A stretch of 64,000 nt of DNA. It comes from Ectocarpus siliculosus. Its lineage: Eukaryota; Sar; Phaeophyceae; Ectocarpales; Ectocarpaceae. The notes beneath the pieces are model-generated. The model searched no databases. It was given only the letters and a program-made list of their open reading frames with translations, and was not told the DNA's origin. Below, in pieces: positions 21,402 to 60,973 of this stretch. Position 1 is the stretch's first letter. Each line of letters starts with the position of its first letter. The stretch covers positions 5,708,864 through 5,772,863 of the forward strand of contig FN649740.1 of NCBI GenBank assembly GCA_000310025.1. The letters run 5' to 3'. Position numbers and translations under genes: made by a program.

Positions 21402-21419
21402 GTGTTCTAGTCGACGCCA
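21402..21419 (-). other. Putative tRNA primer-binding site, copy B
   Basis: Minus strand TGGCGTCGACTAGAACAC one base inside the 5' LTR, identical to copy A. Confidence 0.55.
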
Positions 21420-21420
21420 A

Positions 21421-30400: not shown

Positions 30401-33400
30401 CAGCTCATCTAGATCATCAATCTGGTCAAAGGCGATTTATTGACAGAAATCGGGGATAAACCTCCCACCGAGTTGAGCGTACTACAACAACAGCCGGACG
30501 ACTACCACAACCTGCATCATCAGTGAGTGAGACATCAAATATTGTTCGACAATATCCGCCAATTTCAGTTTCAAGAACCACAGCGAAGCGGCCATTGTCA
30601 CCAGTTTTCTATGAGTACATGTCGTTCTTTGTTCAGTCCAAGCCAAACTGCGCTACTGAGCACGTGTGCGTCGCCTCGTGGTCAACGGCTTTGCCGTTGA
30701 TCGCGGGTAACGATCCTGCGACGAGGTGCTCATCTCAACGTGGTTTGCGTCTTGGCGACAGGGCATAGTTCAGCGGGCGTACAACGCCTTTGCTGTGAGG
30801 TTGCTGGACGTTGAACCACCCACACCGGGCGGGAGGGTGGCCTGGAGCAAGAACTCTGCCAAGCTACCGAAGGTCAACACACTCCAAACATATCGGTCGG
30901 GCGAAATATGGTCTCGATATTGACGACGTAGGTTTCTTTGGCAAGGTACAGAGCAACCTGGACGGCAGAGGGTGTCGGGGCAATGGGGAACACGGCAAAA
31001 CTCTGGATATGCCCTAAGGGGCAACATATGTGCCGTTAGGCTCGTTCGAGGCCGGCATCAGTACCTCCGTAGACGTATGTGTCTAAATATCGTGACCATT
31101 TTTTCTGTGTGTGAAAGGTTGTACCCGCGGAGGAGACTGCGGAGGGCATACCGTGCATCGAGATGCGCATCAGGATGTACCACGACGGGGCCATGAGCAA
31201 ACTGCTAGAAACAATCTCGAAGGTGAGCTCTACGATCGACCCCGTAACGAGACCACTTCACCAGGTTGGCGAGGTTGCTTGCGTTGTGTTTTGCCGCAAA
31301 CGTTCCTCGGGTATCGAACTTTAGTGTCTCGTAAGGCCTTTGCCGCAGGTTGTCTTTTTGGGACGTGCACAGGTCTCGATAGAGTTGCGGTACACCGGTG
31401 AAAGACAATTTTCTTTCTTGGTTTGACTTCTGAAACTTTGTGGCACGCGTACCAATCGTCTTGAGGGTCCTAGGTAGATCAAGATGCGACAGAGGTTGAA
31501 ATGTTGTTACTTCACCTTGAAAGGGTTGTCGTGGATGAAATTGATGTACGGAAACATGCATCAAGTAACGTACTCTAGAGGCAATTGTTCGACCGAGGAA
31601 ACCTGTACACTTAGCGCATACATCGTTAGATAAAGAGTCATGCTGAAGCTCAGTAACACAATCGACCTTTCCCAATCAAAGTCATGCTTCGCCTGGATGC
31701 TGAGCACCCAGACTGCACGAAATTGCGCCCAAACGACCCGTCTCCAGGATACAGACAACGCTGCCGTCCAGCTGCAAGGACCGTTCCTCATCAACAAGCT
31801 CGCTCCGCCACCGGCCCACAGCAACGTCATCATGATTGCGGCAGGCACAGGCGTCAAACCCAAGTAAGCAGCACATTCTCTGGCGCGTGTACTCTGCTTC
31901 TATTACATCTCTTCTGATTCTTGTGGCGACATCGCCAAGTGCGCACTGTGTCGCGGAAATTCTCTCCGCTGACAAGGCTCATGAGCTGATTTCGGCTTCT
32001 ATTTTCGTTTGTCTTGGGTTCGAACCGCAAGCTGCACTTGAGCTTGTTTTCGTGGATACTCTCGGCCAGCGTTTATGTAAAGGAAAGACTCGCTTGAGAT
32101 CTTGGAACCATACCCCGGGCGTAGTGGGTGACGATTAGGCAAAAGAAGCGAAGTATAGACTGAAGATAGCAGTGCTGCCGAGCTGAGGCACCTTCCTCGG
32201 AGTGAAGGGGTCGGGTCATTTGAACCCCCGTGACTTAACTTTTATAGGAGCCGAAACCAAACAATTTTACTAGCTTGGACTAGACATCCCCTCCTTTTAG
32301 AATAGAAGACGGAAAAACTTGGAGTTTGGTCATTAAAACGTGTTGGGCGGTGTAGCCACATCTGCTCTCGTACATCGCCGTGCAATGGATTTCAGATATC
32401 GTTTATTCACCACTTCGTAATGAATTACCTATGGCGTTGTCCAGACCCTGGTCGGGGCACACACTTGTGCCTTGTCGCACGGCCGTATCTCTCGCCGCCA
32501 AGGATGTCGTGACACCGCCGCACGACACATTAAACGAAAGTGGTGCTAAAGCTGCGCGATGACGAAAGCAACGACGTTCCGCAGCTGGTTGGCGCCCTCT
32601 CTTGACTTCCCCACGCAACCTACTCTCCCCCCGCGTGAACTGACTCTCGATATAACGTCACTTACCGGTGGTCTTCAACGGTCGAACAAACCGCCTACGG
32701 CAACGGCAGTGCTCCAGCAGATTCGGAACTATCTCAGCGTTTCCAGGTGGGCGGTAAACCGTAACAAATGGCGATAATCACCACTTGCACGACTTTTCGG
32801 AACGCGTGGTGTCTTGCCGCCAGCTCTTGCGAACAGCAGCAGACACGATATCTCGCGCTTGCTGCGGGATCCCTCCCTTCGCACCGCAATTTGCCCCAGG
32901 GACACAAGGTTCTCCAGCGGGTCGCGGCTGGTCCTCGTGTGCCAGAGCACGACCGAGGCCGACTTCTACGGTACCGACGAAATCATGGCCATGCAGGTTA
33001 GGCACCTCTGCATGGCTCAGTGTGCAAAAAGTTGGAGGCATCTCCAATTGGCAACTTGGCCATACGGACATGGCTGGCCCTTTGCCTTCCGCCCGAGGTT
33101 CCCTTCCGAGAAAAGTCCCGACCTACACCCCTACCTTTTCCGCCGGTGCATCCGGCTGGCCCTTTCTTATTGAATGGTTACGAATCCAGGAGAAGAGTGA
33201 TGGACTCCTCGAATTGACTGCTCTCACCAGTGAAGGAGGTCGTTGTCGGAATGCTCCCAGTGCAGCCTTTCGTAAGACGCGTCACATAGCCCGGAACATC
33301 TTCGCTTCGCCGGCGCCTTCGAATACCAGCTCCGCTAATCCCTTCACTCTTGTCGGGTACGGCAACGCGAATGTTTGACACCCTTTGATTACCCTTCCCT

Positions 33401-35775
33401 TACACAGCGACTATTTGTTTGAAGTGAATGTCCGCTGTCCGATAATAGCAGGGTGTACCAAAGAATTACCGTTTTTCACGTGTCCAGCCTTGCTCTGCTT
33501 GGCCAACTCGCTTTGCAAAGTCCCTGCAAGGCCAAATCACCTAGCGGGCGCAGCATGTGTAATTCTGCACCACCTTGGTCGGTGCTTGATTGCCGTGGGT
33601 GCGCTTCCCTGCTATGGAGTTCGAAGTTCCCATATTCCCTTGTCCCATATCTACATACACTTGTGGTTACGGCAGACGCCTCTCTCACAACCAGGGTACG
33701 ACGAGAGTCCTACTTGTGACCGGCTGTTATGCAACCACAATACCACGAATGCTGAGCCAACGTTGTGCTGCAATCGTCGCCAGGTCCAACCTAGACAGCA
33801 ACGGCTCTGGGAAACCTCCACCCTATATCACTCCGTCCCGAGTCGGTCGAGGGGATCAGCAGCAGCCACCCCCGTATCGCACTCCGGGTCATGACGAGAA
33901 GAAGCAATCTGCCTCTGCAGCAGGGGCCAAGAAAGAAAGGACACCGAATGGCGTTAGCAAGCTACTTCCCAAGAAGGTGAGACGCACCACTTGGCAGTAA
34001 CGCACCGGAAAATTCGCGTACGTGAAACCTACGCCCAGACCTATTTTTGTCGCACGGATGTAGCTCTAGCGTTTCCCAGACAGTTGAATGGCGAGCCCCG
34101 GACGTATCATTTTGTCCGTGACTAATAGCCATTACTGTCCAGCGGTCTCTTTCTTGGGTTGGTTGGTCGGCTGGACTATCCTGTAGTAGGTTGCCGTCGT
34201 GCTCTTCCTTGTTGCCGTCCGGAAAGTGCAGGGAGGACGGCCTCTGAACAACGGCTACATCTAGCGGGGGATCGCTTCGTCAAACGGGGAAAATATAGAT
34301 TTCACCCTGATACTGTTAAGCTCCAACGCTTCTGGTTGCTTCGAGGGCACTGGCAGGTTTTCTGCGCGGAACGACTCATTTCCACGCGCGCAGCGCGATG
34401 GCTTGCCGGAGAAAAACGCCAAACAGTGTCGCTCCCGAAAGCTGTAATACACGAGCAAGGCCCGTGTACTCTCCGCGGGATATTGTTGATGGTCGGGTCG
34501 TACCGCATCAAGGCAGGGGGTCTTGTTCGAGCTCTTGGTGCTGTAGTTTGATGTTTGATATGTACCGTGCGTCTGAAGGCAACGGCTAGATCGGCTTTGT
34601 TGCGTGGAAAAGTGCTGGTGATGTTCATGTCATTCCATCCCGCATATTAATGATCACACGTGATTTCGTGGCGCCTTGCACGTCCCGATGGATGGCTGTT
34701 GTTCATGCTGCTGTAGTCTTGGCGCAACTCGAAACGGGCTGAGAGCTCAACGCCAGGAGCTGGCCGACGCGCACCTATGCAGGACACCAGCGTAAGTTTG
34801 ACGATATGTGCGTGCGTGCAGAGAAACGTCCTACAACAGAGGTTGGAATGTCAGGATGGGGGGGGGGGGGGGTCGTGCGGGTTATCGTGGGAATGTTCGG
34901 ATCTGCCTCAGATAGGTGTACAGGGCTCGTCACCATTGAACCTACGCCCCGTCCGCCGAATTTTGTCATTGCCAGTCGTATCAAGTGGGAGGTGGTCTTG
35001 TTCGAGGCAGAATAAACCGGGAGATCCTCGACACGGCCTTCGGCGAAGCCCTGATCACCTCAATCGCGGCGTACAACAACCAGCGAGCGGTGAACAGCCT
35101 TCTTCGCAGTGACCGCGACGGCGAGGACGAGGAGGAAGGGCAAGACGTGGACGATGGGGACCTGGTTGGCACCGACCGAATCGCAGGGAAACTTCAGGTG
35201 ACAACTCAGAAAAGTTGTTGGATCGTGACTGGTATCTTCAGTTGATTTTGTGCAAAGAATGGCGCATGTGCGTCGGTGAAACAGTTCCCTGCCACGAACC
35301 TGTCGACTGCATGTACGACTTATTCCACACCATTGTCTAGGAAAGCAGCAGCAGCAACACCATCACCACACACCAGCGGTGTCTGGGGACATACCTTTCG
35401 ACACTCCTTTGATTGCTTCTTCGTCGAATGGAGAGTTTGGGAACTCGCATTTGGCGAATTGCTCTCATGAGATGAAATGAACGCTTCCTCCTCCTCGCCA
35501 AGAGCGACTCCAGAAGCACAGTATATCGCTATCCTATGTATGGCACCATCGGTGAGTCGAGCCCGGACAGCGGAGAACCAGGTATGTACTGTAGTCTACA
35601 TGTAGACATTGTCCGTCATAACAATACGAGCGTTTTTACCACGTCGCAACACGTCGTATCATTTGTGCTCCGCTGTCAGGTGGTTGTTTCAGGGCCTAGC
35701 GAGTTCGTGGTCCACGCCAGGCAGCTCCTTGCCGAAATGGGGGTCCCCGCTGGCTGCATGGTGTTGCTTGACTGA
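24407..35775 (+). pseudogene. 5'-truncated tandem copy of the peroxidase-DOMON-b561-b5-reductase gene (b561 to C-terminus)
   Basis: Exons homologous to exons 9-26 of the 44728-60973 gene: 24407-24453 (partial), 24910-25165, 25530-25659, 26020-26269, 26800-26988, 27354-27578, 28404-28541, 28853-29041, 29827-29877, 30762-30872, 31118-31222, 31748-31863, 32710-32746, 32900-32996, 33190-33356, 33784-33976, 34976-35197, 35680-35775 (stop TGA). Most lengths equal those of the full copy. Three differ by frame-breaking amounts: exon 11 by -5, exon 12 by +7 (creating TGA after IVNEGTQ) and exon 20 by +1. Homology starts abruptly inside the first b561 helix (LIAWMIIAPWG), and no peroxidase or DOMON exon lies upstream. 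Cytochrome b5 (HPGG) and the reductase motifs are otherwise well kept, so decay is recent or the indels are bypassed by altered splicing. Confidence 0.85.
27836..27970. other. Assembly gap in a G-rich intron
   Basis: 135 N preceded by about 30 bases that are almost all G (27805-27835) and followed by another G run near 27995. It lies in the intron between exons 14 and 15 of the truncated copy. Unsequenced G-rich simple repeat is the likely cause. Confidence 0.9.
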
Positions 35776-41016: not shown

Positions 41017-41531
41017 TCACATCACCCGCCCCCCCGGTTTCCGGCCAATCACCGAGCCGAAGCCCACTCCTGACCTATACCTAACACACACGCGATGACC
41101 TCTACGACAGATCGTCCCTTCGTCTCACAGGAGCGGCTGCAGTGTGCACTCTTCTTATTGCTTCTTGCTGCAGCTGCTCAAGTTGTACTCCAATACGTCA
41201 TCACCACCATGCTCATCCAATCTCCCGATGAAACTTCCCCGCAATTTCTTGCCTACTTTGCCACTGTACGATTCAGTCCCGCGCCACAAACCCCAGATTT
41301 CCTTCGTTCAATCTTACACTTAGATGTTGGACACGCTTCTTCTTCCGTCCATCGAAATCATGAGCTCTTCCATTCGTTTTGCATCAACACACAAAAAATG
41401 TGGGGGGGGTGACATTTTTGGGCCACGTCGCCAGATTTCTCATGGGGTCATGAGACGATTCTCATGGTGCACCAAGTTGGTTGCATTTTTCTGTATTTGA
41501 GTTTTTCCGAGTCATTTCCCCAAATCCAAGG

Positions 41532-44727: not shown

Positions 44728-47700
44728 ATGCGCTTGCCTTTTGGCGCCGTCTTCTTGATGGCGGTGGCAACGGCCGTAGATGAGGAAATGTTCACGCCGA
44801 GAAGTTACGACGGTACTGGAAACAATGAAGACAATCCTACTTGGGGCGCTGCGGGGACAACCCAGGTGTGGTGACAAGCGCAACAATGCGTCCATGACCC
44901 ACGACACTCTTCCTAAGTTGGTCGCACGTATATTCTATGGCGGAAAACAACAGGGCTCGAAGGCCTTTGAGCTCATTAGCGGAAAATGACGTTAAGTTGG
45001 GGTTTTTCGACTCTGTTTTCGACGCTAGCCAGTTCACTCGGCCGTCCCCCAACACCTCGCTTCGGTTGCACCTTCCTCCTCTTGCCATGCCCCGCGGCCT
45101 ACTTTCCAGATACGTTCGCCAGCTGAATATTCGTTTGCGGACGACGCATTCACTCCGCTGGAGGAATTTAGGCCGACTGCGAGGCAAGTACGGCCGTAAG
45201 AGGATCTTGTTTCATCGGAGGCGTCATGCCGAGAACCAGTTGTTTCTAACTTTGGTATGTTGGCACTGCCCTCACTCCGCGTTCGGGCTCGAACGGGCTT
45301 TGACATGTCTCGGCTACGTGCGCCTAACCCACTCATCACCGTCTGTACTCTGTACTCCTTTATTTCTCCCGCAACCGTTGACAGGGAGTTGATGACGGAC
45401 GTGTTCCTGTCGTCGCCACCGTCCGTTTCTGATATGAATGCGGTTTCCATCGCTTGGGGACAGCTGCTGCTTCTCGATTTGTCCTACACCGTCGACAACA
45501 GCTCGGAACCCTTCGAAATCGCTTGCGATGACGGAGGGGGCTCCGTTGACGTTTGGTGTCCTCTGGGGGAGGCATCTGATCCAATCCCTTTTTTCAGATC
45601 CCAAGCTACGGTGACTGATTCTGTCCGAAACCCGATCAACTACGCCTCCTCGTTTATCGACCTGGACTTCGTGTATGGAAGGAGCAAGGACGCTGCCGAT
45701 GCCCTTCGTACCTTTGATGGCGGAATGCTGAGTATGGCAGATGACAACATGCCCATCAAGAACAGCGACGGGACTTGGTTGGTAGGTTGGCGAGGCCAGT
45801 GTACTTGTAGAAGTTTAGAACAGCAGTGTCGAGCGCGCAGCAGAAGATTTATCCAAGTTGCGAGAACCTAGATGGTCGACAGGTCGTGTCTGTGACAAGC
45901 AACGGTTTGTATGTACATCTGCACTGCGGTCAACAACATGTTGTCTACATTCGTTGTCCCGATCTTCATTGTCCCGAACTTGTTCGGTTCGGGAACTATC
46001 CATCGATGTATTGCCAACCAGTTGACAATCTGTATTGGCCTCCATATTTTCTTGATTTTGCCGCTGTCACCTTGTCACCTCTACGGTAGATCGCGGATCA
46101 ACGGACAGCCAGATTTCCGCTGACGTTCGCCCTTCACGTCGTTCTCCTCCTCGAGCACAACCGCTGCTGCGTTGACGTCGCGCCAGCTCTGAACTACACG
46201 AGTGATGAGGTCAGTCATGCTGAAGATAAGATACCCGCTTCTTAGGGAGCACACAGGCTTGTGTCGTGCCTGATTCCTTGCCGCAACTTCGATGGAGCAT
46301 CATTACGTCGTCCTATTCGTTTCGATCGGAACAACAGAAAAAAATATTTGTAAAGAAAGAAATACGGAGTTGTCCGTTAAGGTGATTGGCTTGGGTTGCC
46401 ATACCCACCCCGCATAGCCAATAGTGGCAGTGGATCGGCGTGTCCCACGTGTGTGCGCCAGCAGGTGTGGCCACGTGCCCCCATTCATACGCAATCGCGT
46501 CGAAATTGTTCGTTTGACCAACCCCACATGCATTTTTTGGGCTTTGAAATATCAGATTGAACCATGAACCAGAATCGTCCCCTTTCGCGCAGGAAGCCAC
46601 ATTATATGCTTGGCGAACGCAGAGCGTAGTGTCATGTTGAGATCAGGAATATTTCACACGAAGAACCACTCATTCCTCTCTTCAGAGACTCGAGACTCGC
46701 TCAAATATTATGTCATGAGCTCGAACAGCAGTGCACATCATGGCTTTTAACGTATATAATTTTTCCACTGCTCACCCGATGTTGTTGCCCTAAGACGTGC
46801 GGTTACCTCGCACCTCACTGACGTGCAACCCGCCGACCTCACACACAACAAACTCCTCGGTTGCTGAACAGGATATGTATCAAGCTTGCCGAGGCTGGAC
46901 GATCGCCACATTTCAGCACATAACTGAAGATGAGTTCTTGATTCTACTAATGGGAAGAAGCATCGGCGACTGGACCGTGTACCAAGATGACGATGGCGGC
47001 AGCAGACGCAGGCTATCCCCAGAACAGCGGAGGGAGCTGTTGTTTACTTTCGACTACTACGACGACCTCTTGAACCCGTCCGCCGACGTCTTCGTGACGG
47101 TGGCCATGACCGCCGCGTTCGAGTCGGCGCTGCCTTCTACCCTCCGCATTGTGAGCGAGGGGTATGTTGCCACTGACTACGATCACCTTGAGCTCACCGT
47201 TGCGGCAGAAGATATCACGGGCCTGTTCGAGCACAGCGCGATCGGGGACATCCTGCGTGGAGCGGTTTTGTCTCCCGCGATGGCGGTATGGCCACACTTC
47301 GCTTCGGCGGTGTCGAACGCCTCGCCGTTGTTCAAACTCCCAGTTGACATGGTGCAGCGGGCTCGTGATCATGGGGTGCCATCGTACAACGACGTCCGGG
47401 AGGTGAGTCCTTAAAATTGTCAAAACGTTTTGGAGGCACCGGTTCCACCAACCTCGCTGTGTCGAGGGGAGGGTAAGGAGCGAGCCCTCTCGGTCACAGT
47501 TGCACGTGGGGTATTGATTGTCCCACGCCTCAGGGCGTGGCCGAATGCTCATCCCTAGGGAAGAAATGCTGGAGTATCAACCGGAGGTGAACCTTGAAGT
47601 GTAGGCCCTTACTGTCATCTTCGCCACGAAGCACCCCCACGTGTTCCCAGGCTATTACGAGGGGACACATTTCCATGAAAAGAATAATCCACCTGTTTAC

Positions 47701-48137
47701 ATGCACGAACAATACAACAGGCATATGAACTTTCCAAAGCCACGGCCTTTTCGGATGTCTCGGCGGACGACGACGTGGTGCAACTCCTATATGCTGCGTA
47801 CGGTGGAGAAATCGAAAACCTCGACGCGTGCGTCGGGGCCTTGGCGGAGGAGAAGGAGGCGAGCCTAGGTGGCAATTTCGGTGACCTGCTGCACACAGCA
47901 TGGGTGAACCAGTTGTACAGAACATTCTTCGGGGACCGGTACCACCACCTTCACTCGAGGCCGATCGAGAACGTGTCACTCGCGTCTATCTCAGGACTAA
48001 TCAATCAAACGCTCGGCGTGACTGACCTGCCGGCATCGGGTTTCACGGTGCCGGAAGTTACCGTGTGCACCGGGGAATGCGAAGCTGCGGGAATATCGGG
48101 GGTCTCGTTGGCAGAGCGCTACGCCATGTCGTGGGAG
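44728..48137 (+). other. Domain: signal peptide and animal-type haem peroxidase (exons 1-6, residues 1 to about 545)
   Basis: Family landmarks appear in order: SYDGTGNNEDNPTWGAAGT near the N-terminus, FRPTAR/ELMTDVF across intron 2, AWGQLLLLDLS, NYASSFIDLDFVYG, FPLTFALH with LLEHNR, FQHITEDEFL, RARDHGVPSYNDVR, and a C-terminal helix region (FGDRYHHL). The proximal histidine is kept (residue 226, codon 46156-46158) with its following Asn. The distal Asp-His pair expected after WGQ-x-x is Leu-Leu (residues 100-101, 45470-45475). The domain is complete in length for the family but probably lacks classical peroxidase chemistry. It should face outside the cytosol because of the signal peptide. Confidence 0.85.
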
Positions 48138-51100
48138 GTACACGATGTCGTTGAAGGAATGCTTGTTTCCTAGGTTCTCGGATTAGGACTGTACTGGTAT
48201 CACTCTGATCCCACAGAGTGGCTCATCGACACATTCACCGACGTCCAGCAGTGCGATATTCCCTTCTTCCCGGAGCTTTCGGATGTACACAGTTTGGATT
48301 GTTTCTTGGGTGAACGAACGGGCGGGTGGAAACGAAGGGCCCCTCCTACACGCCGCGACCGTAATCTTTCTTGGGATGAGGGTAGACCCTTGCCCTAGTC
48401 ATCCGAATTTTGATTCCTCGCGAACAAGCGACCTCGAAGGAGTGTTTCGACCGGGTTCGACTGCGTTGATCATCCATGTTTCACCACCTGGGGCCGCAAG
48501 CCCATGGGGGTTGTCGCCTAATGGGAAGTCTGCGATGGTCCCTTCTCTGCCACGTTTTGTCAGTAGTTGCGTGATCGACGATGTAGATGTGTTGGATGTT
48601 TGGACGCTGCACCACCATGCAGATTCTAATGATGCCGCTCCACGTTACTGAGCGGCATACGGTGATAGCGAAACGAGTTTTCCGGGCTTGACTCCCACGG
48701 CGATGCATCTGTTGAAACCCTTGGCCATTTCACAGGTGATTGATGATCAAACGATATCGATTTCCTTGAGTGTCCTGGGTATCGGCGACAGCGGGATGAT
48801 GGGCATCGGCTTTGGAGGATTGTCCATGACGGATGCCCAGGTGCGAGAAACCAAGCTATAATCTAATCGCTCCGAAATTCTGAACACAACAGTCTGTTTA
48901 GTTCTTCCTCCGTTGAGCGCTTCCGGCTGTCCTCCTCACGCTCGAACCTTATTCGGGTTATTTCGCTCAGGGGGGTGCGGACTATTTTTTTTTCTAGAGC
49001 AGTTTTTCAGGTGAAAGCGAAGATGTCACAATTTACAGGTCGTTCCACTGGTTGTCGTTACCGTTGTGTTCCACTTGAGTGTATATCAGCGCTATGCAAT
49101 AAAGCCGCAAGCAGGGAATGGCGGAAAGAGGCTCGAAAACAATGCTGTGTCTTGTCGTCCAGGCGGGAGGCTTTTCTCTCCTCCGGGGATGTGCTCAACT
49201 TTGGCAAACAAACCCCCGCTAGTGCCGGTGTTCGTTTGGGGAGAACTGTGTCCTACACCTTGTACGAAGTACCTCCCCACACACTCGGCCAGCTCAAAGC
49301 TGCTTGCGTCATGGTTTTTTTCTGCTGTTCATGACGTCGTTACGCCAGTCGACAGCAGTTGATGTCCATACTCTGTGACGGCCGAATACTCACCCGTATG
49401 ATTGTGCGCGCGGGAGTATGTATGCATCAACGATTCCAACCAGCTCACGGTCGTGCTCTATTCACGTGTTGCAGCATGCTGTTCAACACAATAGTCTACT
49501 TCCCGCCGTCTGCTCCGCCAACGCTCACCGCTGGTGTGTTGATGCATATGGTGCCCTCTAAAGGATTTCATTATCTGTGAGGTCTTCTCAACGGGCGGTG
49601 CCGAATGCATTGACCGGTCTCCCACTGGAGGGCGATCGGAGCCGCAGCCGGACACTTTGCAATCGGGCCTCCAAGTTACCAATGTAACGACGGACAAGAC
49701 CTGGACTACCGTGACGTTCTCGAGGGAACGGGCGACGCTGGATGCAGAAGACTACGACCTCTTTGAGGTGGGTGCTACACCTGCTGTGCATGTTATCTTT
49801 TGGAATATTTTTCGCGTCCACCTTGATGACGTCTTATATTTTGGGGAGTTCATTCCGCGGGTTCCGGTATACGCCAGTGATGCTGCCGCTGTGAATTCAA
49901 CGCCGATGTAAGGAAGAGCGTACCCGGCCTGTGTCAACCTTCCATATATGGACATTTTGGTTTCGGTACAAACAATATCCGTTAGCGGCGTGCATGCCGC
50001 CTCAAGTACGTTTTTTTCGTCGCTTATAGGATATCGAAAACGAAGAGGACACCCTCGTCATCTACGCGTTCAAGAAGGGAGAGGGCGTGGGCCAACATCC
50101 AAACACCAATCGTGGAGCGGCCACGATAAACTTCGTCACGGGAGACGTAGACACTCAGTGCGACGGCGAGACCAACTTCGTTTCGTTGCACGGCGCGCTG
50201 ATGCTCATCGCGTGGATGCTCATCGCACCGTGGGGCATCTACTACGCGAGGTGAGCAACCTCAAACGATAATTTGTTCTAGAGTTTTGGATGTCACTACC
50301 TGAGTCAAATCGCGACTGAAAGCTTTCGATAGCAAGAAGATCCCCTCTTTTCCGTGGCTAGCTAGGTGAAACCACAACTGATTGGTACTGACAAGTCAGA
50401 CGGGACGCTCGCTTTTTTGCCATTTGCGGAGCTGACCAGCAACAATACATGTCCGAACGGCTGATCCAACCTTGGCGTTTTTGGCCAGCCGTGCCTCCCT
50501 CCCTCACAGCCGTAGTATTTTCTTGCGCGATCTCCAGCCGAATAACACGGTGATTGGTTGCCGAAAGCACAACCTCGCTCATAACGATAAGTCGTCTCGA
50601 ACATTACTCGTAATGCATGTGACACACCATGGGCATTATCCCAGGTACCGCAAGGGCGACGCGATTAAGTGGGCTGGACGCGAATGGTACGAGATGCACG
50701 AGGACATCATGATCGTTGCCTCCGAAGCCGTGCTCCCCCTCGGGATCACCGCTGTATTTGCTTCCAGGGGCAGGACGTCGGAAGCACACGCGCACTGGGG
50801 GTACTACATGATCGCCGCGGTCGCAATGCAGATCTTCACGGGCTGGATGAGGACCAAGGGATTAGAGGCCAAACACTCGAACTTTTCCTTGCTTCACAGG
50901 GTGAGATGAGCAAGACATGTTGGTTGTCGATGAGACGTGTACACCATTTATTTTTTCCGCATGCCAGTACTTGGAGGACATTCTTCGCTATCCATTGACT
51001 CGCACTGGGTAGCTCTCGCAGGCGAAAGCCGGCAAGTTCCAGGCACGTGCCGTTCGCTTTGGGTGTTCGCTTGACGATCCACGCTGTTCATCTCAACAAT

Positions 51101-54100
51101 CGAACCAAGGCTACCCAGCCCCAACAACATCACTGGATACCATGAGAAAAAATGACAACACGTTTGAGGGCCTCAATTGCCAAGCATCTCCTAGGCTAAT
51201 CAGCTACTGCGGGAACTCCCTTGCTCAACAGTTCAACAAGCACTTCCACATCTGGGCCGGACGATTCGCATACGCAGCCGGAGTGGTGCAGTGCTACCGA
51301 GGGCTGGAGCTCGTGTCCTCGGACGATGAGCTCATATTCTCCGCAGGCGATGGCCTTGACCTGCAGGTGAAGCCATGGGAGCGAATCGTAGTCCCTCCTC
51401 ACCAAGTATTCTACGTCACCCCGCACCTGCATTGATCGTGACGAATGCGGGCAATATAGTTGTTTCCTACTTCATGAGGCGTACTCCGTAAGTTCCCAGC
51501 GTTGGTGTGATGACTTCCGTCGCTGAAGAGCTCGACTTGTATGTAGGAGTGCAAAGGACGCAGCAGAATCCTCGGGATATACAGGCAGAAACACCCCCGG
51601 CTGTGATATCGGAATATATGTGTCGCTGTACCCCTCTGCCTTCTTGGATACTGTCCTTGACGGTGACAATCTCCTGTCAGATCGCGCTGCTTGTCACATT
51701 AGCCTCCTTGTGTTCGCTCACCTCTTGCTGAAATTCCTGTTCGCACTATTTCGACCGAAATACAGCTCGGCAGCTTCGGTTGGGTCAAGGACTACCTGTT
51801 CCCTGCCTGGTTTGCGCTAGTCGCCGGCGGCTTTCTTGTCTTAGAAGCACAAAAGCAATACCAGCGATTCTTCAAGAAAGGGGCGGCTAGCGTGTGTGGA
51901 GTTGTGTCTATTGTCAACGAGCTACACGATGGCTCAATGCACAAAGGCAGGCTGATTCCGAGAACGTTGGACCTGCCTATCTACAGCGTTGCAGCATTCA
52001 ATGACAAGGTGAACGAAGACTGTGGACTTTTGGCGATCGGTAATAGTGTTTGGCGTGCTTCGCGCGGCAGGGTGTGCGCTTCATTGAACTGCTTGAATCG
52101 CATTAAACGTGGAGGCATCGACAACGGGTTTCAAGCTCTATTCAGTCTTTTCGTAGTACGCTCGGTCAAGAACAGTTCGCGGAGTCGGTTTTTCTTTACC
52201 GTGCAAAGGGTGTCGTTCAGAATAAATCTCCCGCTCAACACCTATTGTCCTTGGCCTAAGTTTGTTTCCAGTCAACGTCTCGACGCCATGAACCTCTAGA
52301 AGGAAACGTCTCCCACCAATTCGGAAAGGATCGTAGACAACATGTGCCAAATGCAACCCATATGTAGCATGCACCTCCTAGGTCCCGCAAGATACGCAAT
52401 AAGTCGAAACGATCTCCCAACCTCCACCATGTCGCCATTCTCTTGGAGTCTCACGCGGACCATAACCAACACCACACACCGTGCCTGATGTAAACGTGTC
52501 TTGCGGCCCAAAACTTACCTGCCTTCCGACCAACCTCTCTTCGATCAGGTGTTGAGCGGCCAGTCCTGGTTGATGGTGGATGAAGCAGTTCTGGATGTGT
52601 CCGACTTTGCGCAGAGGCATCCAGGCGGTCGACGCCTCATCCTCAACGCCTTGGGCACCGATGTTACTCAGGAGCTGATCGGACAAGAGAACTCTGTGGG
52701 GCATGCCATGTCCTTCCCGCCTCACGTGCACACCGGGGTGAGTGCGCGCTTGACAGAACCAAATTTCCCTCCTGTTGAAAATGTGTAGAACAGACGAATG
52801 TTAGGCGTATCGTTCTGATGGCCCTCGAACAGCACAAGAAGATGGTGTGACTGCCGACCACCTCAACCATCACACACAGACCTCTTGGAAACCATTGGAT
52901 GGCAACGCAAGGGCCAAATCCTGGACAACCCCCTCCGCAAATTGTCGTCAGGGGGGTGGATGATTGGATGATGCGATATATTTCGTAGCATTGCAGTTAT
53001 TATCGCCACCAACAAGGCTCCTGACCCACCTGTTGCGTCTACACCTTTTCTTACTCGCTGGCGGCAGAGTGCATGGCGAATCATTCGTTCGCTTGTAGTC
53101 GGCTACATCGAGGAGAAGGACGCTGCGGAACCTACGGCTGCCTTGGAAGATGACCAGGAGCAGGAGGGAGAAGAGAAGGTCGATACCACGACCGGTGATA
53201 TTCCCGTTCCTGACGCAAACAACCGAAGGTTTCGTGTCGCGGGCAAGGCGGTAATGCTGAACAACCGACTGGCCTTGGGCGACGATACTCTGGCAAGTGA
53301 CGATCCACGTCACGATACTCATGTGTCTCGAACAATGACCTCACAGCCAACGAATTGCATGTATTCGACAGGCGTTCCGAAGCATCCACATCATGATGCA
53401 TGAGTGTGCACCTGAGTCGAAATCAACAATTTGGATGTGAGATACTTTGTGGGCCGGCCGTTGAGAATTTCCACACCAAGCTCAGCTACTTGGTCACGTA
53501 GGTGCTTTCTCGACAACACGCTGTACACACCGCACCAGAAAACTCTCCCCACTTTCCCTCGATTTTGGGATCGCCTGCTGAGATGTGCCTTTCCGTATCA
53601 AACCATGCCGATAGGTCGTGAGGGGCGGCATGGAACCGATACTTGTTGTTCCCTTTGTTTCGTGGTATGCAACACTTCCTCCAGGCAACCAAGGCCATGC
53701 GGCTGAACGACTTGGCTGTCATTCCCGCTCCAACCAGGCGCCCCTCGAGAACGGCAGCGTCGAACAACCCAGCAAGCGTTGTGGGCAACCCGCCCATAGA
53801 AATGGACGTCGTAAGTCTCCAAGTCTCCCAAGTTTTTGTCTCGTGGACTGTGCAGACGTGCCGAGACCTTGTTTCTCAGTACCCGGCATAGTCTAGTGCT
53901 TGTTTGATGGACGCCCTGTTCCCAACTGAAAGATGGGCAGATGACCATGTAGTTGCACGTTCAGATTCCCCAGCTGTTGGTTTTGTGTGCTGCTGCTTTT
54001 TCCCGCGAATTTCAATCGGGGTCAATAACACACCACGTCGAAATCCCCCAGAGGGAACACCCGGCGTTGCCGGAGGGAAACACCAGCATTGTTTAGCACC

Positions 54101-57100
54101 TACAGTATGAGCGAAGCTCAAGGACAACATAAGAGCTGATACCCATGTTATTTTCCGTTGAACTGGAACGGAACGTTTGATACATCGAAGGCTCAGCGCG
54201 CCGATGAGAACGACGGCGGATGGGGAAGCAGCACGGACTTGCTCGAGCGATTTCAAGTATGCCCCCTGCTCTTCCGAGAGAGGATGGGAGCCGCCAGCGC
54301 CGTGGGCCGCGGTCACTTACCCAGCAAGCGCCCGGTCTACAGATACATTTTTTCTTGTCCCGCTAAGGCGCAAGCCCAGGTATGCACACCCTCGTTTCCC
54401 TTCATTATTATAGTGTTTTGCGTCAATCCTCCCCTTTGGCATGCTCCGCTGTAGACACGAGGACCCGCCAGCCAACGTAGCTCTCTTTTTTCCGCTTGCT
54501 TTGCATTCTGAACAGTCGGTCGGGCCTGTCTGTAGACAGAGAACATAGACAAAAAGTGGAAAACGTAGGTATCAAATGTCGTCGAAAGCATACGTTGACT
54601 ATGACACCCATGACGGAATTGGAGTCCATGAAGTCAATGTCTCTTCCTGTGGTCCCGCCGTGCACGTCTAAACAGCGCGGAACCCTATCCACGCCGCGGG
54701 ACACAAAACAAACGTGTTGGTCCAGAGGTCTTTTGTGCTGATGTCGCCTAGCTCTCGCATCACACGGGTTTTTCTGTTCTCTGTTGCGCGGTATACGTTT
54801 TCGACCACGTCTTTGGTCAACCAGCAGTTCATGTCATTTTCATGATTTTTTCGTTAGTTGCCTTGTGGTTTACACGGGAAAATTCTTCGGCCCCTATCAA
54901 TTTCGGTACAAAAGGCGCAGGCGGTTTCAGGGGTCTGCTACTTCAACATGCGCGCCCAGGAAGAGGGAAAGGTGAGGCTTGAAACGAACAGAGTCGTGGT
55001 GAATGCTCTGTGGGATCGCCGTTCTGCGCCAGGTACATGCCTACCTTTTCGTGCGCTACCACGGGTTGTTGTGACATCGTTGTCGCGTGCCCCGCCCTAG
55101 CGATCACGTGACTGAACACAACGCCCCTACGCTCGGCTGTATTGTGCGGGGTTGGTTTTCCTCTCGCCCAAGAGGCGATACTGCATTCTGACAAGTGACC
55201 TTTTCGGGTCTGTTGAACCATATCAATGGTCTAGATTGACTTGGCTCCCGCTGGAATGTTTGTGTTGGCCGTATTGATGGAATTTTCATCCAATCTGCCA
55301 CAAAGGAGGTCTCCCAATGTCCTCTAGAAAACGAATGCCGTCCGTGCTGCAATGGTTGCTGTTGTGGACTGCTGCTACTGGCATACGTCCGGAATAGTTA
55401 TAGGAGAGCTGGATGTGGCATGGCAGGGACCCCTACAGGTCTCAATCTCTCGCACTACCTACAGTTTCGCTAAACCGCCCATGGGACACCCATGGGTCTC
55501 CCATGGGTCGGCTATGGGCACTTCATGGGCCGGCCATAGGCAGCCCATAAACTGCCCAACGTGGGCACTTGAACCTAGAACTTCGCCACCGGGATATCAA
55601 CCTAGAACTTAGCCACCAGCGCCAACCTAACACGTTCGTGTGGGCTTGGGGTTAGGGTTACGGTTAGGGTTATTAGCCACTATTGTACCCGTTCCAACGC
55701 GGACAATCTGTTGCTTAGGAGTACACGGGTTCGGTTATAGGGCTCCCATTGGCAGCCCATGGGCTTCCCAAGGGTCGCCCATCGGCTGCCCATGGACCTA
55801 ACGGGGCGCCCATGGGCGGCCCATGGGTCACCCATGGGTCACCCATGGGAGTCCCATTGGTCGTTTGGGAAAACTGTGGAAAGTGTGGGAGACCCACAAG
55901 CCAACCCTACAGCATGGCTATCTGTGTCTCTCACTGAGATGCGAGGATGCGAGGTTTGAGCACACACGGTCAAGAACATTCTCTGTCGACCTGATCAGTG
56001 ACTTGAGATTTCCTACGGAGTATCGAAAATCGGCATGGATTTGTTTTTCGTCTTGTCGTCAGCGGCATTGTTCGTGATCTCAACGTCGTTTGCGTCTTCA
56101 CAACAGGGTGTTGTACAGCGGCCGTACAATGCCTTCGCGGTGAGGTTGCTGGACGTCGAGCCACCCACACCGGGCGGAAGGGTGGCCTGGAGCAAGACTT
56201 CTGCGAAGTTGCCTAAGGTCAGCACGCTTGAGACAAATCGAGCGAAAGAAGAAAATAATTCGATGTAGACGGCATACTCTAATCTGCTCCTCGTTCGCTA
56301 CACACACCTGCACCTGAAGGTTGATGCAAACTGTAGCCTCCATGGACATAGTCCGAACGACATGTTCAACCTGTGCCACAAGGCTCTCGTGCGAGCCCAG
56401 CACCTGTCCCATCGTTAACGTTAACGCACGGTGCCTAACTCGCGTGACGGTTTTTCCTCTGTGTGGAAGGTTGTGCCGGCAGAGGAGACTACGGAGGGCG
56501 TACTGTGCATCGAGATGCGTATCAGGATGTACCACGACGGGGCCATGAGCAAGCTACTAGAAAAACTCTCCAAGGTGAGCTCTACGATTGATTCCGCAAC
56601 ATGATGTTGTGCAATGGTTTCGCGAAGTTGCTCTGGCAGTTTTCTTACCATCCTCCTCAAGCCGAAATATTTTCGAGACTGAGGCCGTTTTCGTTTATCA
56701 AATATTTTGCCTCATGTGTGCTAACCTTCGGCGTAAGGTGCCGGTACACCGACCACTACCATTTGTTTTAATTGTCACAATTACACTGCTTGTGTTACGG
56801 GTAACAAAATCTCCTTCAAGAGTCGAGCATCAAAATGTGACAGATGATAGTTTTATCACCTTGAGTGGGGCGTTGTGGATGAAAGGGGACTTCGTGAACA
56901 TTTGCGGAGTCTAATACTCAAATTCTAGCTGCTGTTTGACCGAGGGAACCTGTAGACTCAGCTCTCGATTTTATTCCACGAATATCCGTCAGATAATCGT
57001 TTTTTTCTGCCAAGGCCAAGATCACAAACAATATTTGCTTTTCCACGCCATGCTCCGCCTAGATGCTAAGTAACCGGATTAGCGAATTTACGTTTACTCT

Positions 57101-60100
57101 TGATAAACGTCCATACAACTCGTCTCCAGGATACGGACAACGTGGCAGTCCAGCTGCAAGGACCATTCCTCGTCAACAAGCTCGCTCCGCCACCGGCCCA
57201 CCGCAACGTCATCATGATTGCGGCGGGCACAGGCGTCAACCCAAGTGCGCAAAGATGGTTACTGATGGATGTGTTGTCTCTACAATAGCGTATTCGCTTC
57301 CGGTGTGTGTGACGAAGACAACGTCGCCGAGTGCCCAGTATGCCGCGGATGTTCGCTCCGCGCCCTTGGAGCCAAAAACGGAAATGCTTTGAATTTGGGT
57401 ATTGAAACGTCTTCGAAGGTTTAACGACAGGGCTAAGGTTAGGCTAAGGGTTACTCTAACACTACCTGACCTTGCCGTGCAATATATGTCAGAAATTGGC
57501 CGTATAATACCTTAAGTACCTCAGGAATCTGTGCAGACCCATGTCGCAGAGGCCAATGTGCATGACCGCAGGAAATCGACGGCCTTTCCTATATATCGTG
57601 TCAGATAGTTCAGGGCCACCACCTTTGTCGTACTGTCTTATCCCCGCCGCCAGCGATGTCGTACTAGACCCCGGCCACCACATCAAACGAAGGCGTGCTC
57701 TGTGACGCAGTCAACGAAGTGTCGCAGCCGACTGTCGCCGTATCTTGACGTCCCCGCGCAACCTATGTATGCCCCCCCCCGCGTATCTCCTTCATTCGCG
57801 GCGTGACGTCCCTACTGGTGGTCTTCGACGGTCGAACAAATGACCGACGGCAATGGCAGTGGTCCAGCAGATTCGGAACTATCTCAACGTTTCCAGGTGG
57901 GCGGCAAATCGTACGTGGGATGGCCATCATCAGTACTTTCACGACGTTTCCGAAACCCTCTGGCGTGCCGACGACTCGCATGAACGGCAGAAGAAACTCG
58001 CGCGTAAAGCGGGATCCCTCCCTTCGTATTTTCAATGACCCCAGGGACACCACGTTTTCCACGAGGTCGCGGCTGGTCCTCGTGTGGCAGAGCACGACGG
58101 AGGCTGACTTCTACGGTACCGACGAAATCACGGCCATGCAGGTAAGTCACCTTTGCATGGATCAGTCTGGATATGCAGCAGGCATCTCCCATCGCTAACT
58201 CGGTGATATGGCGTGGCCGGCTCTTTGCCATTCTGGTGTCGCTCCCACTGTTGGACACGTCCCGAACATTGATCGGTGCAACATCCACCCCGCCCTGGCT
58301 TCTTGAATTGTTATTATCCAGGAGAAAAGCAACGGACTCCTCGAAGTGACTGCTCTCACCAGTGAAGGAGGTCGTCGTCGGAATGCTCCCGGTGCAGCCT
58401 TCCGCAAGGCCCGTGACATGGCCTGGAATGTCTTCGGTTCACCCGCGTCTTCAAACACCAGCTCCGCTAACCCCTTCACTCCTGCGGGGTACGGTGCCAC
58501 GATGATTTCGGGGTCATCAAATTATCCCCCGAAGACGCAGTGGGAACTGTTGGTTGATCGCTCTTTCGTCGCCATTTGAACGCGTAGGCGTACCATATTT
58601 TTCAGTATTCCGCGCTTGAAATCCGGGATTTGATCTGTCGGTCCGGCTTCTCCGCGGGTCCAGCCTTGTGTGTGCTCCGTTAAAATTGGTCGGCGAGGTT
58701 CCTGCGAAGGTGCGCTTGAACAAGTAGCGGGCGCAACAAAATTATTATCTACCGCCTTTGCTCCATTTCCGTTGGAGCGCTTGCCTCACCTTTGAACCTC
58801 GAAAATCACTTGCTCTAGATCAGATGCCGGCACGCACTTGTGGTTTCAGAGCACACCTCTCTCAGAACCAGGGTACGACGAGACCCCCACTGCCAAGCGG
58901 CCCATGTGCAATGACGTTGCTACGAATACTGCCGTGTTTTACCCGTCGCCAGGTCCAACCTCGACAGCAGCAGCTCCGGGAAACCGAAACCTCCACCCTA
59001 TTCCACGCTGGCCCGAGACGGTGGAAGGGACGAGCAGCCACCCCCGTACCGCACCCCGGGTCGTGAAGAGAAGAAGCGCTCTGCTGCAGATGCAGGGGCC
59101 AAGAAAGAAAGGGCCCCGACTGGCGTTGGGAAGCTACTGACCACGAGGGTGAGACGTACCACGTGGCAGGGACACATTTGCAATATGCGTACGTACGTGA
59201 CACCTACGCCCAGACCTAGTAACACGGATGTAGTTCTGGCGTTACCCAGGAAGTTGAATAGTGAGCGCAGGACGCATCATTTTGTCTGTGGCTAAATAAC
59301 CTGGTCTCAGGGATGCTCGCACCCAAAACGAGGCAGCTACGCCCAACAAGGACCACCAGTGGTCGCTCTCTTAGCTGATTGGTCGTCTCGATTACCTCGC
59401 AGCAGATTGCCGTCCTTCTCTCATAATCGCCCCGCTGAAAATTCAGTGTGAGGAAAGTTTCTGGAGAACAGTGACAGGCAGACGCAGAATCCTTGCGTTC
59501 CATGCGAAAAGGTAGATGTGACGTCCAGACCAGTACGCTCCAAGACTTCTGGTTGTTCGAGGGAATGGGCAAATTGGCAGAATTGAACGAGTCGTTCGCA
59601 CGATCGCAACGAGATGGCTTGCCGAACCAACCAATGACAGTGCAGCTCCCGAAAGCGCTATCGTACGAGAAAAGCCCGAGTACTCTCCGAGGGGTACTGT
59701 TGGATGAGCAAAGTGGGCGGGGCGGGGCATCTTCGAGTGGTGGATGACTACTGAGCAATAGGAGTGCCGTGTGTCCCGGGGACTTGCCTGCCTCACTACG
59801 GAAGCTATGGGGATGTTCTAACCACTGCATCATGTATGTCGACCGTATGTTTCGTGATGCTCGTGGCGCCGTGCGTGTTTCGATGGACGGCTGTTGTTCA
59901 TGCTGCTGCAGACGTGGCGCAACTCGAAGTGGAATGAGAGCCCAACGACAAGCGGTCGCCGTCGCGCACCTATGCAGGACACCAGCGTGAGCTTCAGACA
60001 TGTGCATGAGTTAGGAGTAGCGACCGACAATCAAGTTTGAAATGCCAGAAAAGGGCTCGTTGAGAGTTAAGGCTCCACATCGTGAGAAGGTTGGAATCTG

Positions 60101-60973
60101 CATCATCTGCGAGGCGTGGTCTCAGGTGAACCTACTCCCATTATCTCCCTCTCGCTGTTCTGGTTTGTCATCGCCAGAACTATCAAGTGGGAGATGGGCT
60201 GGTTCGAGGCAGGGTGAACCGGGAGATCCTCGAGACGGTCTTCGGCGAAGCCCTGATTTCATCAATCGCGGCGTACAACAGGCAGCGAGCGCTGAACAGC
60301 CTTGCTTGTAGCGACAGCGACGTCGGGGACAACAAAGAAGGGGAAGGCGAGGATGATCGCGACCTCATAGGCACCGACCAAACTGCCGGGAAGCTTCAGG
60401 TGGCCATCACGAGTAGTCGTAGTTTCTTGTCGTTAACAATTCATATAAACGATGATGAAAACCTCGCCACAAACCTGAGAGCTAGGGTGGCTATGGTTGT
60501 GACGATAAAGTGTAATCCAATAGAAACGGTTCTGCCGTTGGTTGTGAAGAAGGCAACAGCAATAACAGCACGAGCAACGTCTAGTCTAGAGGCCTATCGT
60601 TTTTCGAGGATTTCTTTCGATGGAGCACGTCGAGTGTGTGGCTACCTCTTCGTGCCAGGGAGAACGGCGAGTTTCAGACTCGCTTTTGACCTGTTACTCT
60701 CCCGAAGTGAACATTTCCTCCTCGTGGACAGTCGGTCCAATGGCGCAATCTTGGTGGGATACTTCTGGCAGTATCGACTATTCGATGCTGGACAGTGAAT
60801 GGTCAGGTATTCGTACATGACCGCCTGGAGAAACACGACGAACGTGTCCCGTCGAATCCCCTGTGCTCTGATGTCAGGTGGTCGTTTCTGGACCTACCGC
60901 CTTTGTGGCCAACGTGAAGCAGCTCCTTACCGAAATGGGGGTCCCTGCCGGCTCCACAGTCTTGCTTGACTGA
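44728..60973 (+). CDS. Haem peroxidase-DOMON-cytochrome b561-cytochrome b5-FAD/NAD(P)H reductase fusion protein
   Basis: Twenty-six exons, all phase-compatible, total 4767 nt (1588 residues plus stop): 44728-44865, 45110-45183, 45385-45781, 46090-46209, 46872-47402, 47721-48137, 48736-48840, 49564-49767, 50030-50250, 50645-50900, 51232-51366, 51766-52008, 52549-52737, 53068-53292, 53685-53810, 54191-54379, 54921-54971, 56107-56217, 56470-56574, 57130-57244, 57860-57896, 58045-58141, 58322-58488, 58953-59148, 60178-60399, 60878-60973. Introns 2 and 14 use GC donors. The chosen ATG begins a signal-peptide-like MRLPFGAVFLMAVATA. The inferred role is transmembrane electron transfer from cytosolic NAD(P)H to an extracytoplasmic DOMON/peroxidase ectodomain. 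Exon order and lengths in the b561-to-end part are corroborated by the truncated copy at 24407-35775. Weak points are the GTGTGG donor of exon 1 and the absence of transcript evidence. Confidence 0.85.
48105..50180 (+). other. Domain: DOMON (end of exon 6, exons 7-8, start of exon 9)
   Basis: The segment starts around ERYAMSWE at the end of exon 6 and continues VIDDQTISISLSV, GDSGMMGIGFGGLSMTDA and FIICEVFSTGG. It then reads TWTTVTFSRERATLDAEDY and TLVIYAFKKGEG, ending just before the first b561 helix. This matches the beta-sandwich pattern of DOMON domains, which bind haem or sugars and commonly precede cytochrome b561. The direct join MSWE/VIDDQ shows that 48138-48735 is an intron, despite an open stretch within it. 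Confidence 0.8.
50181..52008 (+). other. Domain: cytochrome b561 transmembrane core (exons 9-12)
   Basis: Hydrophobic segments with the family histidines: SLHGALMLIAWMLIAPWG (His about residue 716), WYEMHEDIMIVASEAVLPLG, AHAHWGYYMIAAVAMQIFTG, KHFHIWAGRFAYAAGVVQ, and a last helix LFPAWFALVAGGFLVLE. The family binds two haem b groups through paired histidines and moves electrons across a membrane. The helix order follows DOMON-b561 proteins. A cytosolic loop ends at NDK before the cytochrome b5 exon. Confidence 0.88.
52549..53292 (+). other. Domain: cytochrome b5 (exon 13) and linker (exon 14)
   Basis: Exon 13 gives GQSWLMVDEAVLDVSDFAQ followed by the haem-binding HPGG (His about residue 971) and a second histidine in ENSVGHAMSF (about residue 999). 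These are the two axial ligands expected for cytochrome b5. Exon 14 continues SAWRIIRSLVVGYIEE and an acidic linker, then FRVAGKAVMLNNRLAL, and ends at a GC splice donor (CTG|GCAAGT at 53293) that is conserved in the truncated copy (27579). Confidence 0.88.
53685..60973 (+). other. Domain: FAD/NAD(P)H reductase of the cytochrome-b5-reductase type with inserted PPPY linker (exons 15-26)
   Basis: The FAD-binding part includes RPVYRYIFSCPAKAQ, GVVQRPYNAFAVRLLD (in the place of the RxYT motif, with Asn for Thr) and CIEMRIRMYHDGAMSKLLEK. The NAD(P)-binding part has LQGPFLVNKLAPP, NVIMIAAGTGVNPM and RLVLVWQSTTEADFYGTDEI. A low-complexity insert of about 120 residues with two PPPY motifs (58990-59001 and 59038-59049) then precedes GRVNREILETVFGEAL. 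The C-terminal strand VVVSGPTAFVANVKQLL has Ser where the family usually has Cys of CGP. The end at LLD-TGA matches the usual C-terminus of the family. Confidence 0.8.
55478..55862. repeat. CCCATGGG palindrome clusters around a TTAGGG-like tract, inside intron 18
   Basis: Two clusters (55478-55556 and 55743-55862) contain at least eight exact or near CCCATGGG palindromes at 8-20 bp spacing. Between them GGGGTTAGGGTTACGGTTAGGGTTA lies at about 55648-55673. The truncated gene copy has no such block in the matching intron. Confidence 0.85.

What the first reader, a model, noticed from the sequence alone, without database searches (positions are those of the whole stretch)
44728..60973. Single-chain transmembrane redox system: peroxidase + DOMON + b561 + cytochrome b5 + FAD/NAD(P)H reductase
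Seen: 26 phase-consistent exons give one frame of 1588 residues with the five modules in order. Known: DOMON-b561 proteins pass electrons across membranes, cytochrome b5 reductases feed cytochrome b5, and animal dual oxidases fuse a peroxidase-like ectodomain to a ferric-reductase-type core. Inferred: this protein is a complete NAD(P)H to ectodomain electron wire that mimics dual oxidase with a b561 core in place of gp91phox. It could serve wall cross-linking, iron or ascorbate reduction, or extracellular ROS production. I am not aware of this exact fusion being described.
Basis: partly seen in the sequence, partly recalled or inferred. Interest (0 to 1): 0.9.

Follow-up and report, generated by a model that had tools for sequence, protein, structure and literature searches.

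The report
Brown-algal transmembrane electron wire, pseudo-peroxidase head
A brown-algal gene encodes one long membrane protein that seems able to carry electrons from NAD(P)H inside the cell to the outside, capped by a peroxidase-shaped domain that has lost its working parts, a layout like animal dual oxidase but apparently built from different pieces.

Summary
My splice model has 26 exons (44728-60973, +), one frame of 1590 residues, and the stated order: peroxidase-like domain, DOMON, b561-like core, cytochrome b5, FAD/NAD reductase; four domains pass Pfam's cut-off, b561 does not. It is the Ectocarpus gene deposited as "peroxidase" (P0001). Single-chain homologues occur in other brown algae; two full-chain searches named none from elsewhere. 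A tandem sister with the same exons, one more complete locus and two with a module undetected lie in this genome.

Main correction: the peroxidase domain is very probably not a peroxidase. The distal Asp-His is gone in 27 of 27 family sequences showing it, and none of 37 showing the proximal segment has His there; human DUOX1 has lost its haem ligand too. The domain is still constrained (dN/dS 0.21). Ligands of DOMON, core and b5 are invariant in 11 of 11 aligned homologues.

Best reading: NAD(P)H -> FAD -> b5 -> two b561 haems -> DOMON haem -> extracellular acceptor, under a haem-less head. Acceptor and expression are unknown. The paper searches showed no description of this fusion.

The parts
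44728..60973 (+). Whole gene, 26 exons, 1590 aa: 44728-44865, 45110-45183, 45385-45781, 46090-46209, 46872-47402, 47721-48137, 48736-48840, 49564-49767, 50030-50250, 50645-50900, 51232-51366, 51766-52008, 52549-52737, 53068-53292, 53685-53810, 54191-54379, 54915-54971, 56107-56217, 56470-56574, 57130-57244, 57860-57896, 58045-58141, 58322-58488, 58953-59148, 60178-60399, 60878-60973
   Evidence: exon-by-exon match to sister copy
44728..44799 (+). N-terminus, aa 1-24, likely signal peptide by eye (no signal-peptide tool; not flagged by the hydropathy scan)
   Evidence: inference
44800..47960 (+). Peroxidase-like domain aa 25-500 (exons 1-6). Myeloperoxidase distal Asp-His falls on L100-L101, its haem-linking Glu/Met on R211/F212, its proximal His on E327 (F326 in the phmmer alignment); D102 and S159-F161-D163-D165 fit the Ca2+ site
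   Evidence: MPO residue roles recalled
48114..50143 (+). DOMON domain aa 552 to about 700; candidate haem ligands M590 and H685
   Evidence: ligand logic from passages of PMC10784544
50174..51882 (+). b561-like core aa 711-905; four conserved His H716, H754, H784, H827; five helices in a relative's low-confidence model
52555..53112 (+). Cytochrome b5 domain aa 950-1025; H971 (HPGG) and conserved H1008
54257..60970 (+). FAD/NAD(P)H reductase aa 1150-1590: QRPYNA (FAD), DGAMS, AGTGVNP, VVSGPTAF; long variable linker before the last strand
24405..35775 (+). Truncated tandem copy B: starts inside exon 9 (after the first core His), exons 10-26 present, net frame-shifting indels in exons 12, 20, 23 by alignment; no peroxidase or DOMON exon found

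Best explanation
The gene makes one plasma-membrane protein with extracellular N-terminus and cytosolic C-terminus (topology inferred from five helices and the DOMON position). The cytosolic FAD domain takes a hydride from NADH or NADPH and passes electrons one at a time to the cytochrome b5 haem, then to the inner and outer haems of the b561-like core and the DOMON haem, and from there to an extracellular acceptor, most likely a ferric or cupric complex or an oxidised phenol/quinone, less likely O2. The N-terminal peroxidase-fold domain binds no haem in the usual way and acts as a Ca2+-stabilised ectodomain that assembles, positions or gates the wire or binds a partner, as the ectodomain of DUOX1 seems to. 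Shown: gene structure, module order, conserved ligands and lost peroxidase residues, all in sequence. Inferred: topology, haem binding, electron path, acceptor, role of the ectodomain.
For: Splice model and domains. In the alignment of 11 homologues the columns of the DOMON Met and His, the four core His and both b5 His are invariant. Motif search in 28 sequences (30 held, P0024 and P0028 left out; a miss often means a partial protein; matches not tied to position): HG[AS]L 24, EMHx[ED] 25, HA[HKR][WL]G 25, FHI 26, RHPGG 25, P[HN]xH 25, Gx[GSQ][QK]H 19, QRxYNA 22, DGxMS 22, AGTG[IV][NK]P 21, of 28 each. His spacing 716/754/784/827 is close to HYP1's 211/245/278/314 (passages). Distal Asp-His absent in 27 of 27 family sequences showing the segment, seven different replacements (this gene and P0001 are the same gene); 8 of 8 non-family relatives showing it keep Asp-His. 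Constraint between tandem copies: dN/dS 0.21 peroxidase-like, 0.09 b561, 0.19 b5, 0.19 FAD/NAD. Module distances correlate over 55 pairs of 11 proteins, r 0.74-0.92 (pairs not independent). Foldseek lists cytochrome b5 reductases for the C-terminal part; myeloperoxidase, dopamine beta-hydroxylase, DUOX1 and CDH cytochrome for the N-terminal part.
Against: Cytochrom_B561 stays below Pfam's cut-off (0.67 here; best 0.024 in 11 relatives), and the b561 region found no PDB chain by sequence at E up to 10. No FAD-domain profile hit in this protein, and the FAD motif reads RxYN rather than RxY[ST] (motif recalled). Both structure models are poor (mean pLDDT 44.5 and 49.5). The hydropathy scan flagged only three of five expected helices, and also two stretches in the ectodomain. 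DOMON has the weakest constraint of the folded modules (0.45, on dS 0.115). No transcript, localisation or activity data. Some related loci are deposited as separate genes: P0033 'peroxinectin', P0028 'delta-9 desaturase', P0031 and P0021 (the last pair is cut inside DOMON, so probably an artefact).
Confidence: 0.62

Rival explanations
1. Convergent dual oxidase: the wire hands electrons to O2, giving superoxide or H2O2 outside the cell, for example for vanadium haloperoxidases or the oxidative burst, and the pseudo-peroxidase head steers the product as in DUOX.
For: Similar layout and the same kind of ectodomain decay as DUOX1; constitutive superoxide production in Ectocarpus cells is reported (passage of PMC4949667).
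Against: The characterised DOMON-b561 relative HYP1 reduces ferric and cupric substrates (passages of PMC10784544); no Pfam match to a ferric-reductase/NOX membrane domain, only to its NAD-binding part, weakly; b561 haems are expected to be six-coordinate (recalled).
Confidence: 0.22
2. Active peroxidase fused to its own electron source: the head uses haem to oxidise wall phenols or halides.
For: Strong An_peroxidase profile match and conserved Arg (R208) and Ca2+-site residues (P0013 has Asn at one Ca2+ position).
Against: Distal Asp-His, the haem-linking Glu/Met and the proximal His are replaced in every family row showing them.
Confidence: 0.05
3. Two neighbouring genes, a secreted or membrane pseudo-peroxidase/DOMON/b561 protein and a soluble b5-reductase.
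For: Split gene models in databases; no transcript data here.
Against: No stop or frame break between modules; same order in sister copy A and C18(+), and with one module undetected in C1 and in C4; nine deposited proteins besides P0001, from ncbi and eukprot, run through; the P0031/P0021 split cuts DOMON.
Confidence: 0.08
4. Receptor-like or adhesion role: the wire is used mainly as a redox sensor with the ectodomain binding wall ligands.
For: Apparently dead but constrained ectodomain.
Against: Electron-transfer ligands are conserved, which argues for flux; no signalling domain in the Pfam scans.
Confidence: 0.08

Closest known systems
CYBDOM proteins (DOMON + cytochrome b561; Arabidopsis HYP1, passages of PMC10784544)
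   Same: DOMON with Met/His ligand candidates, four core His at nearly the same spacing, probably five helices
   Different: HYP1 takes electrons from cytosolic ascorbate; here a cytochrome b5 and FAD/NAD(P)H reductase are built in, and a pseudo-peroxidase head is added
Animal dual oxidases (DUOX1, passages of PMC7794343)
   Same: Peroxidase-homology ectodomain without haem ligand but with a cation site, two-haem membrane core and cytosolic FAD/NAD(P)H domain in one chain
   Different: Core looks b561-like, not the NOX/ferric-reductase fold; DOMON and cytochrome b5 are extra; no EF-hand match
DOMON-bearing ferric reductases of Naegleria, Albugo and Phytophthora (passages of PMC3591440)
   Same: Extracellular DOMON on a membrane reductase, partly in stramenopiles
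   Different: Ferric-reductase core; cytochrome b5 and peroxidase-like domain are not mentioned for them in the passages seen
NADH-cytochrome b5 reductase and b5-reductase fusions (CYB5R3, Ncb5or, nitrate reductase)
   Same: CBR-type FAD/NAD module, best fold matches; beside cytochrome b5 in the fusions (recalled)
   Different: Not wired through a b561 core to the outside (recalled)

Membership tests
Animal haem peroxidase (catalytic member) | PF03098 fold | tested here: met
   E=3.7e-71; 11 of 11 relatives
Animal haem peroxidase (catalytic member) | distal Asp-His (haem ester and catalytic base) | tested here: not met
   L100-L101; 0 of 27 family sequences showing the segment have DH; 8 of 8 non-family relatives showing it do
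Animal haem peroxidase (catalytic member) | proximal His | tested here: not met
   E327/F326; 0 of 37 family rows with the segment have His in it; control: 2 of 3 non-family rows with letters there have it, the third (P0055) looks misaligned
Animal haem peroxidase (catalytic member) | Ca2+ site | tested here: met
   D102 and S159-F161-D163-D165 by alignment; residue roles in MPO recalled, DUOX1 site; binding not tested
CYBDOM | DOMON domain | tested here: met
   PF03351 2.5e-9, above cut-off
CYBDOM | b561 core by profile | tested here: inconclusive
   E=0.67, 10.6 of 23 bits; best relative 0.024
CYBDOM | four haem-ligand His on separate helices | tested here: met
   H716, H754, H784, H827; helices from the P0019 model, low confidence
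CYBDOM | ascorbate as donor | not testable with these tools
   a built-in reductase suggests NAD(P)H instead (inference)
Dual oxidase | NOX/ferric-reductase membrane core | tested here: not met
   no Pfam match to such a membrane domain; only PF08030, its NAD-binding part, weakly (7 of 11 relatives; 0.027 here)
Dual oxidase | EF-hands | tested here: not met
   no match
Dual oxidase | haem-less peroxidase-homology ectodomain | tested here: met
   by sequence only
Cytochrome b5 | HPGG plus second His | tested here: met
   PF00173 1.3e-10; H971, H1008
Cytochrome b5 reductase / FNR | RxY[ST], GxxS, GTGxxP and NAD-binding profile | tested here: inconclusive
   RPYN, DGAMS, AGTGVNP; NAD_binding_1 3.3e-6 above cut-off, no FAD profile hit; fold hits from a weak model

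The most novel reading that the evidence does not exclude
Brown algae invented their own dual oxidase: an NAD(P)H-driven b5-b561-DOMON wire that makes extracellular superoxide or H2O2 under a pseudo-peroxidase head, convergent with animal DUOX down to loss of the same haem residues, and feeding wall haloperoxidases.
Probability: 0.2. Interest if true: 0.88.

Novelty: new variant of a known kind. Interest (0 to 1): 0.62.

Why it matters
It would be a single-chain route from NAD(P)H to the cell surface built on a b561-like core, where the DOMON-b561 protein HYP1 depends on ascorbate. It has a constrained but apparently dead peroxidase head, so the puzzle of why DUOX keeps such a domain appears a second time. 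It was found only in brown algae here, including pieces in Choristocarpus and Discosporangium (P0026, P0037; their early branching is recalled, NCBI files them under Sphacelariales), which makes it a candidate for the surface redox chemistry of wall building, iron uptake and defence in this independently multicellular group.

Tried and rejected
Active peroxidase: rejected on residues. NOX/gp91-type core: rejected, no membrane-domain profile match. Chance joining of unrelated exons: rejected by homologues and sister copy. Presence of the fusion outside brown algae: not found, but each scored only about 8,000 best candidates, and 4 of 24 hits (P0003, P0005, P0006, P0015) carry no species; the Undaria code of P0007-P0009 and P0018 is read from its abbreviation. 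The head-only search cannot return the long fusion; it also listed distant peroxidases, one named from an insect (P0057).

Led nowhere: structure prediction with alignments of 16 and 17 sequences gave low-confidence models, so no haem distances were computed; the b561 sequence search of PDB gave nothing; NCBIfam gave only weak reductase hits, far below cut-off. The hydropathy scan flagged three of five expected helices and two ectodomain stretches. Regexes for the DOMON Met found nothing and for the proximal segment hit elsewhere; one search's profile alignment replaced the latter, and one search's regex, which demands Met, found the DOMON segment in 22 of 51 family sequences, so one search is the evidence for Met. 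One search's proximal regex excludes His at one position, so one search is the evidence there. Rows left out: P0028 and nine distant proteins (P0024, P0048, P0053-P0059; 24-30% identity, against 39% or more for those kept). Copy B statistics crashed and were redone.

Papers: ten searches (two were about DUOX), seen as capped listings; passages only were read of PMC11554258, PMC6881991, PMC3591440, PMC9421330, PMC10784544, PMC7794343, PMC4949667, PMC8307928. The library lacks most subscription papers; the 2024 brown-algal genome paper (DOI from memory) was not held.
Full report
Origin and gene model. The window is stretch 5708864-5772863, reaching the contig end, of contig C15 in a 189-Mb genome. 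The deposited Ectocarpus siliculosus protein P0001, named 'peroxidase', is 92% identical over residues 63-1590 and identical over long stretches, so the window is Ectocarpus (inference). A splice-aware dynamic-programming model, seeded on open stretches and then anchored on homologue matches, gives 26 exons and 1590 residues from 44728 to 60973. P0001 starts in a different frame of exon 1 and reads the exon at 58045 in another frame; other homologues support the model given here.

Modules. In 11 relatives, at E up to 10, b561 appears in 9 (best 0.024), NAD_binding_1 in 8 (best 5e-6), NAD_binding_6 in 7 (best 0.0013), FAD_binding_6 in 3 (best 0.044), DOMON in 9. By structure, a model of P0019 matches NADH-cytochrome b5 reductases first (E 2.8e-9), and a model of P0012 matches myeloperoxidase (3.4e-5), dopamine beta-hydroxylase (2.5e-4), DUOX1 (2e-3) and the cytochrome domain of cellobiose dehydrogenase (3.8e-3). 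Both models are of low confidence, so these hits only agree with the sequence evidence.

The peroxidase domain is a pseudo-peroxidase. In phmmer alignments to solved peroxidases and DUOX1 the distal Asp-His of the catalytic enzymes falls on Leu-Leu; DUOX1 has Leu-Ser there. A profile alignment of the fetched proteins shows the loss in every family row with the segment: 27 of 27, as LL, TY, TF, SY, GY, GF or AF (50 family sequences examined, this gene included, 23 lack the segment). The 8 non-family proteins showing it keep Asp-His. The proximal segment is present in 37 family rows and holds no His; at the place where P0053 and P0054 have His it carries Glu, Tyr, Leu or Gly. In the third non-family row with letters there, P0055, no His is seen either, probably through misalignment. 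The Glu and Met that bind haem covalently in myeloperoxidase (recalled) are Arg and Phe here. What stays is the Arg and the Ca2+-site pattern, with Asn at one position in P0013. Human DUOX1 lacks the haem ligand, shows no haem density and keeps two cation sites (passages of PMC7794343). The brown-algal domain is thus degenerate in a like way, yet dN/dS between this gene and its tandem sister is 0.21 there (548 codons), similar to b5 (0.19) and reductase (0.19); b561 gives 0.09, DOMON 0.45 on a low dS of 0.115, the late linker 0.36.

The wire. Candidate ligands are M590/H685 (DOMON), H716/H784 and H754/H827 (core), H971/H1008 (b5), with FAD and NAD motifs behind; all eight columns are invariant in the 11 homologues. 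HYP1 has core pairs 211/278 and 245/314 and M90/H174 in DOMON, and its H211L/H278L mutant loses current (passages of PMC10784544). HYP1 draws on ascorbate; the fused b5-reductase here suggests NAD(P)H. The second b5 His is taken as H1008 because the alternative at H999 is not kept in P0015 and P0018.

Distribution. One search returned 24 proteins: 15 named from brown algae, 4 with an Undaria code, 4 without species, 1 distant JGI protein with immunoglobulin and peroxidase domains. (27 proteins) added Choristocarpus and Sphacelaria. One search, with the head alone (31 proteins), added Discosporangium, environmental pieces and distant peroxidases, one from an insect. NCBI places Choristocarpus and Discosporangium in Phaeophyceae. 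Discosporangium shows the peroxidase-like part running into DOMON, Choristocarpus DOMON through the reductase, so the fusion probably predates the brown-algal radiation (inference; each protein is partial and the branching order is recalled).

Own genome. Copy A (C15:5690234-5706490) has all 26 exons in order with no new stop. C18(+) carries all modules collinearly. C1 lacks a detected C-terminal end in the stretch fetched; C4 lacks a detected b5. C18(-), C3, C26 and C313 show pieces without the peroxidase part in the stretches fetched, which for three of them do not reach far upstream; the whole-genome family search listed no peroxidase match near them (11 matches). Copy B in this window (24405-35775) begins inside exon 9 and has net frame-shifting indels in exons 12, 20 and 23, so it looks like a decaying duplicate, although an Ectocarpus relative has an 894-aa open protein of the same extent (P0016).

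Against one chain. Databases hold split models: P0033 'peroxinectin' (639 aa), P0028 'delta-9 desaturase' (1173 aa), P0031 and P0021. The last two come from contigs of equal length (912069) and break DOMON between exons 7 and 9, which points to annotation error. No RNA evidence could be consulted.

Function. The most economical reading is NAD(P)H-driven reduction of an extracellular acceptor, with the head as a structural or partner-binding domain. Metal or quinone reduction is favoured because HYP1 reduces metals; O2 reduction is kept as a rival, with a convergent dual oxidase as the boldest form. DOMON on ferric reductases is known in Naegleria and two oomycetes (passages of PMC3591440), a different core but the same idea.

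Novelty. The paper searches aimed at it listed no description of this fusion; only listings and passages of an open-licence library were seen. The modules are all known and the layout echoes DUOX and CYBDOM, so I rate it a new variant of a known kind.

Noticed in passing
window 24405-35775 (+): Truncated tandem copy of the same gene lacking the peroxidase-like part and nearly all of DOMON, with net frame-shifting indels in three exons; probably a pseudogene.
   Followed up: yes
window 10-5971 and 13119-21746 (- strand): Two closely related LTR retroelements whose terminal repeats of about 328 bp are all identical; the first is internally shortened. A 66-bp tandem repeat (642-1183; 13753-14284) lies inside both.
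   Followed up: partly
window 40312-41016 (- strand): Open frame of 235 codons that by eye resembles a tyrosine recombinase, within a stretch of strong GC skew (-0.25 at 40001-42000).
   Followed up: no
L023-L033 (contigs C15, C1, C18, C4): A small multigene family of the same fusion in this genome; DOMON between the tandem copies has unusually low dS (0.115), which may mean gene conversion.
   Followed up: partly
P0028, P0033 (deposited Ectocarpus siliculosus proteins): Deposited as 'delta-9 desaturase' and 'peroxinectin precursor' but appear to be partial models of members of this family.
   Followed up: partly
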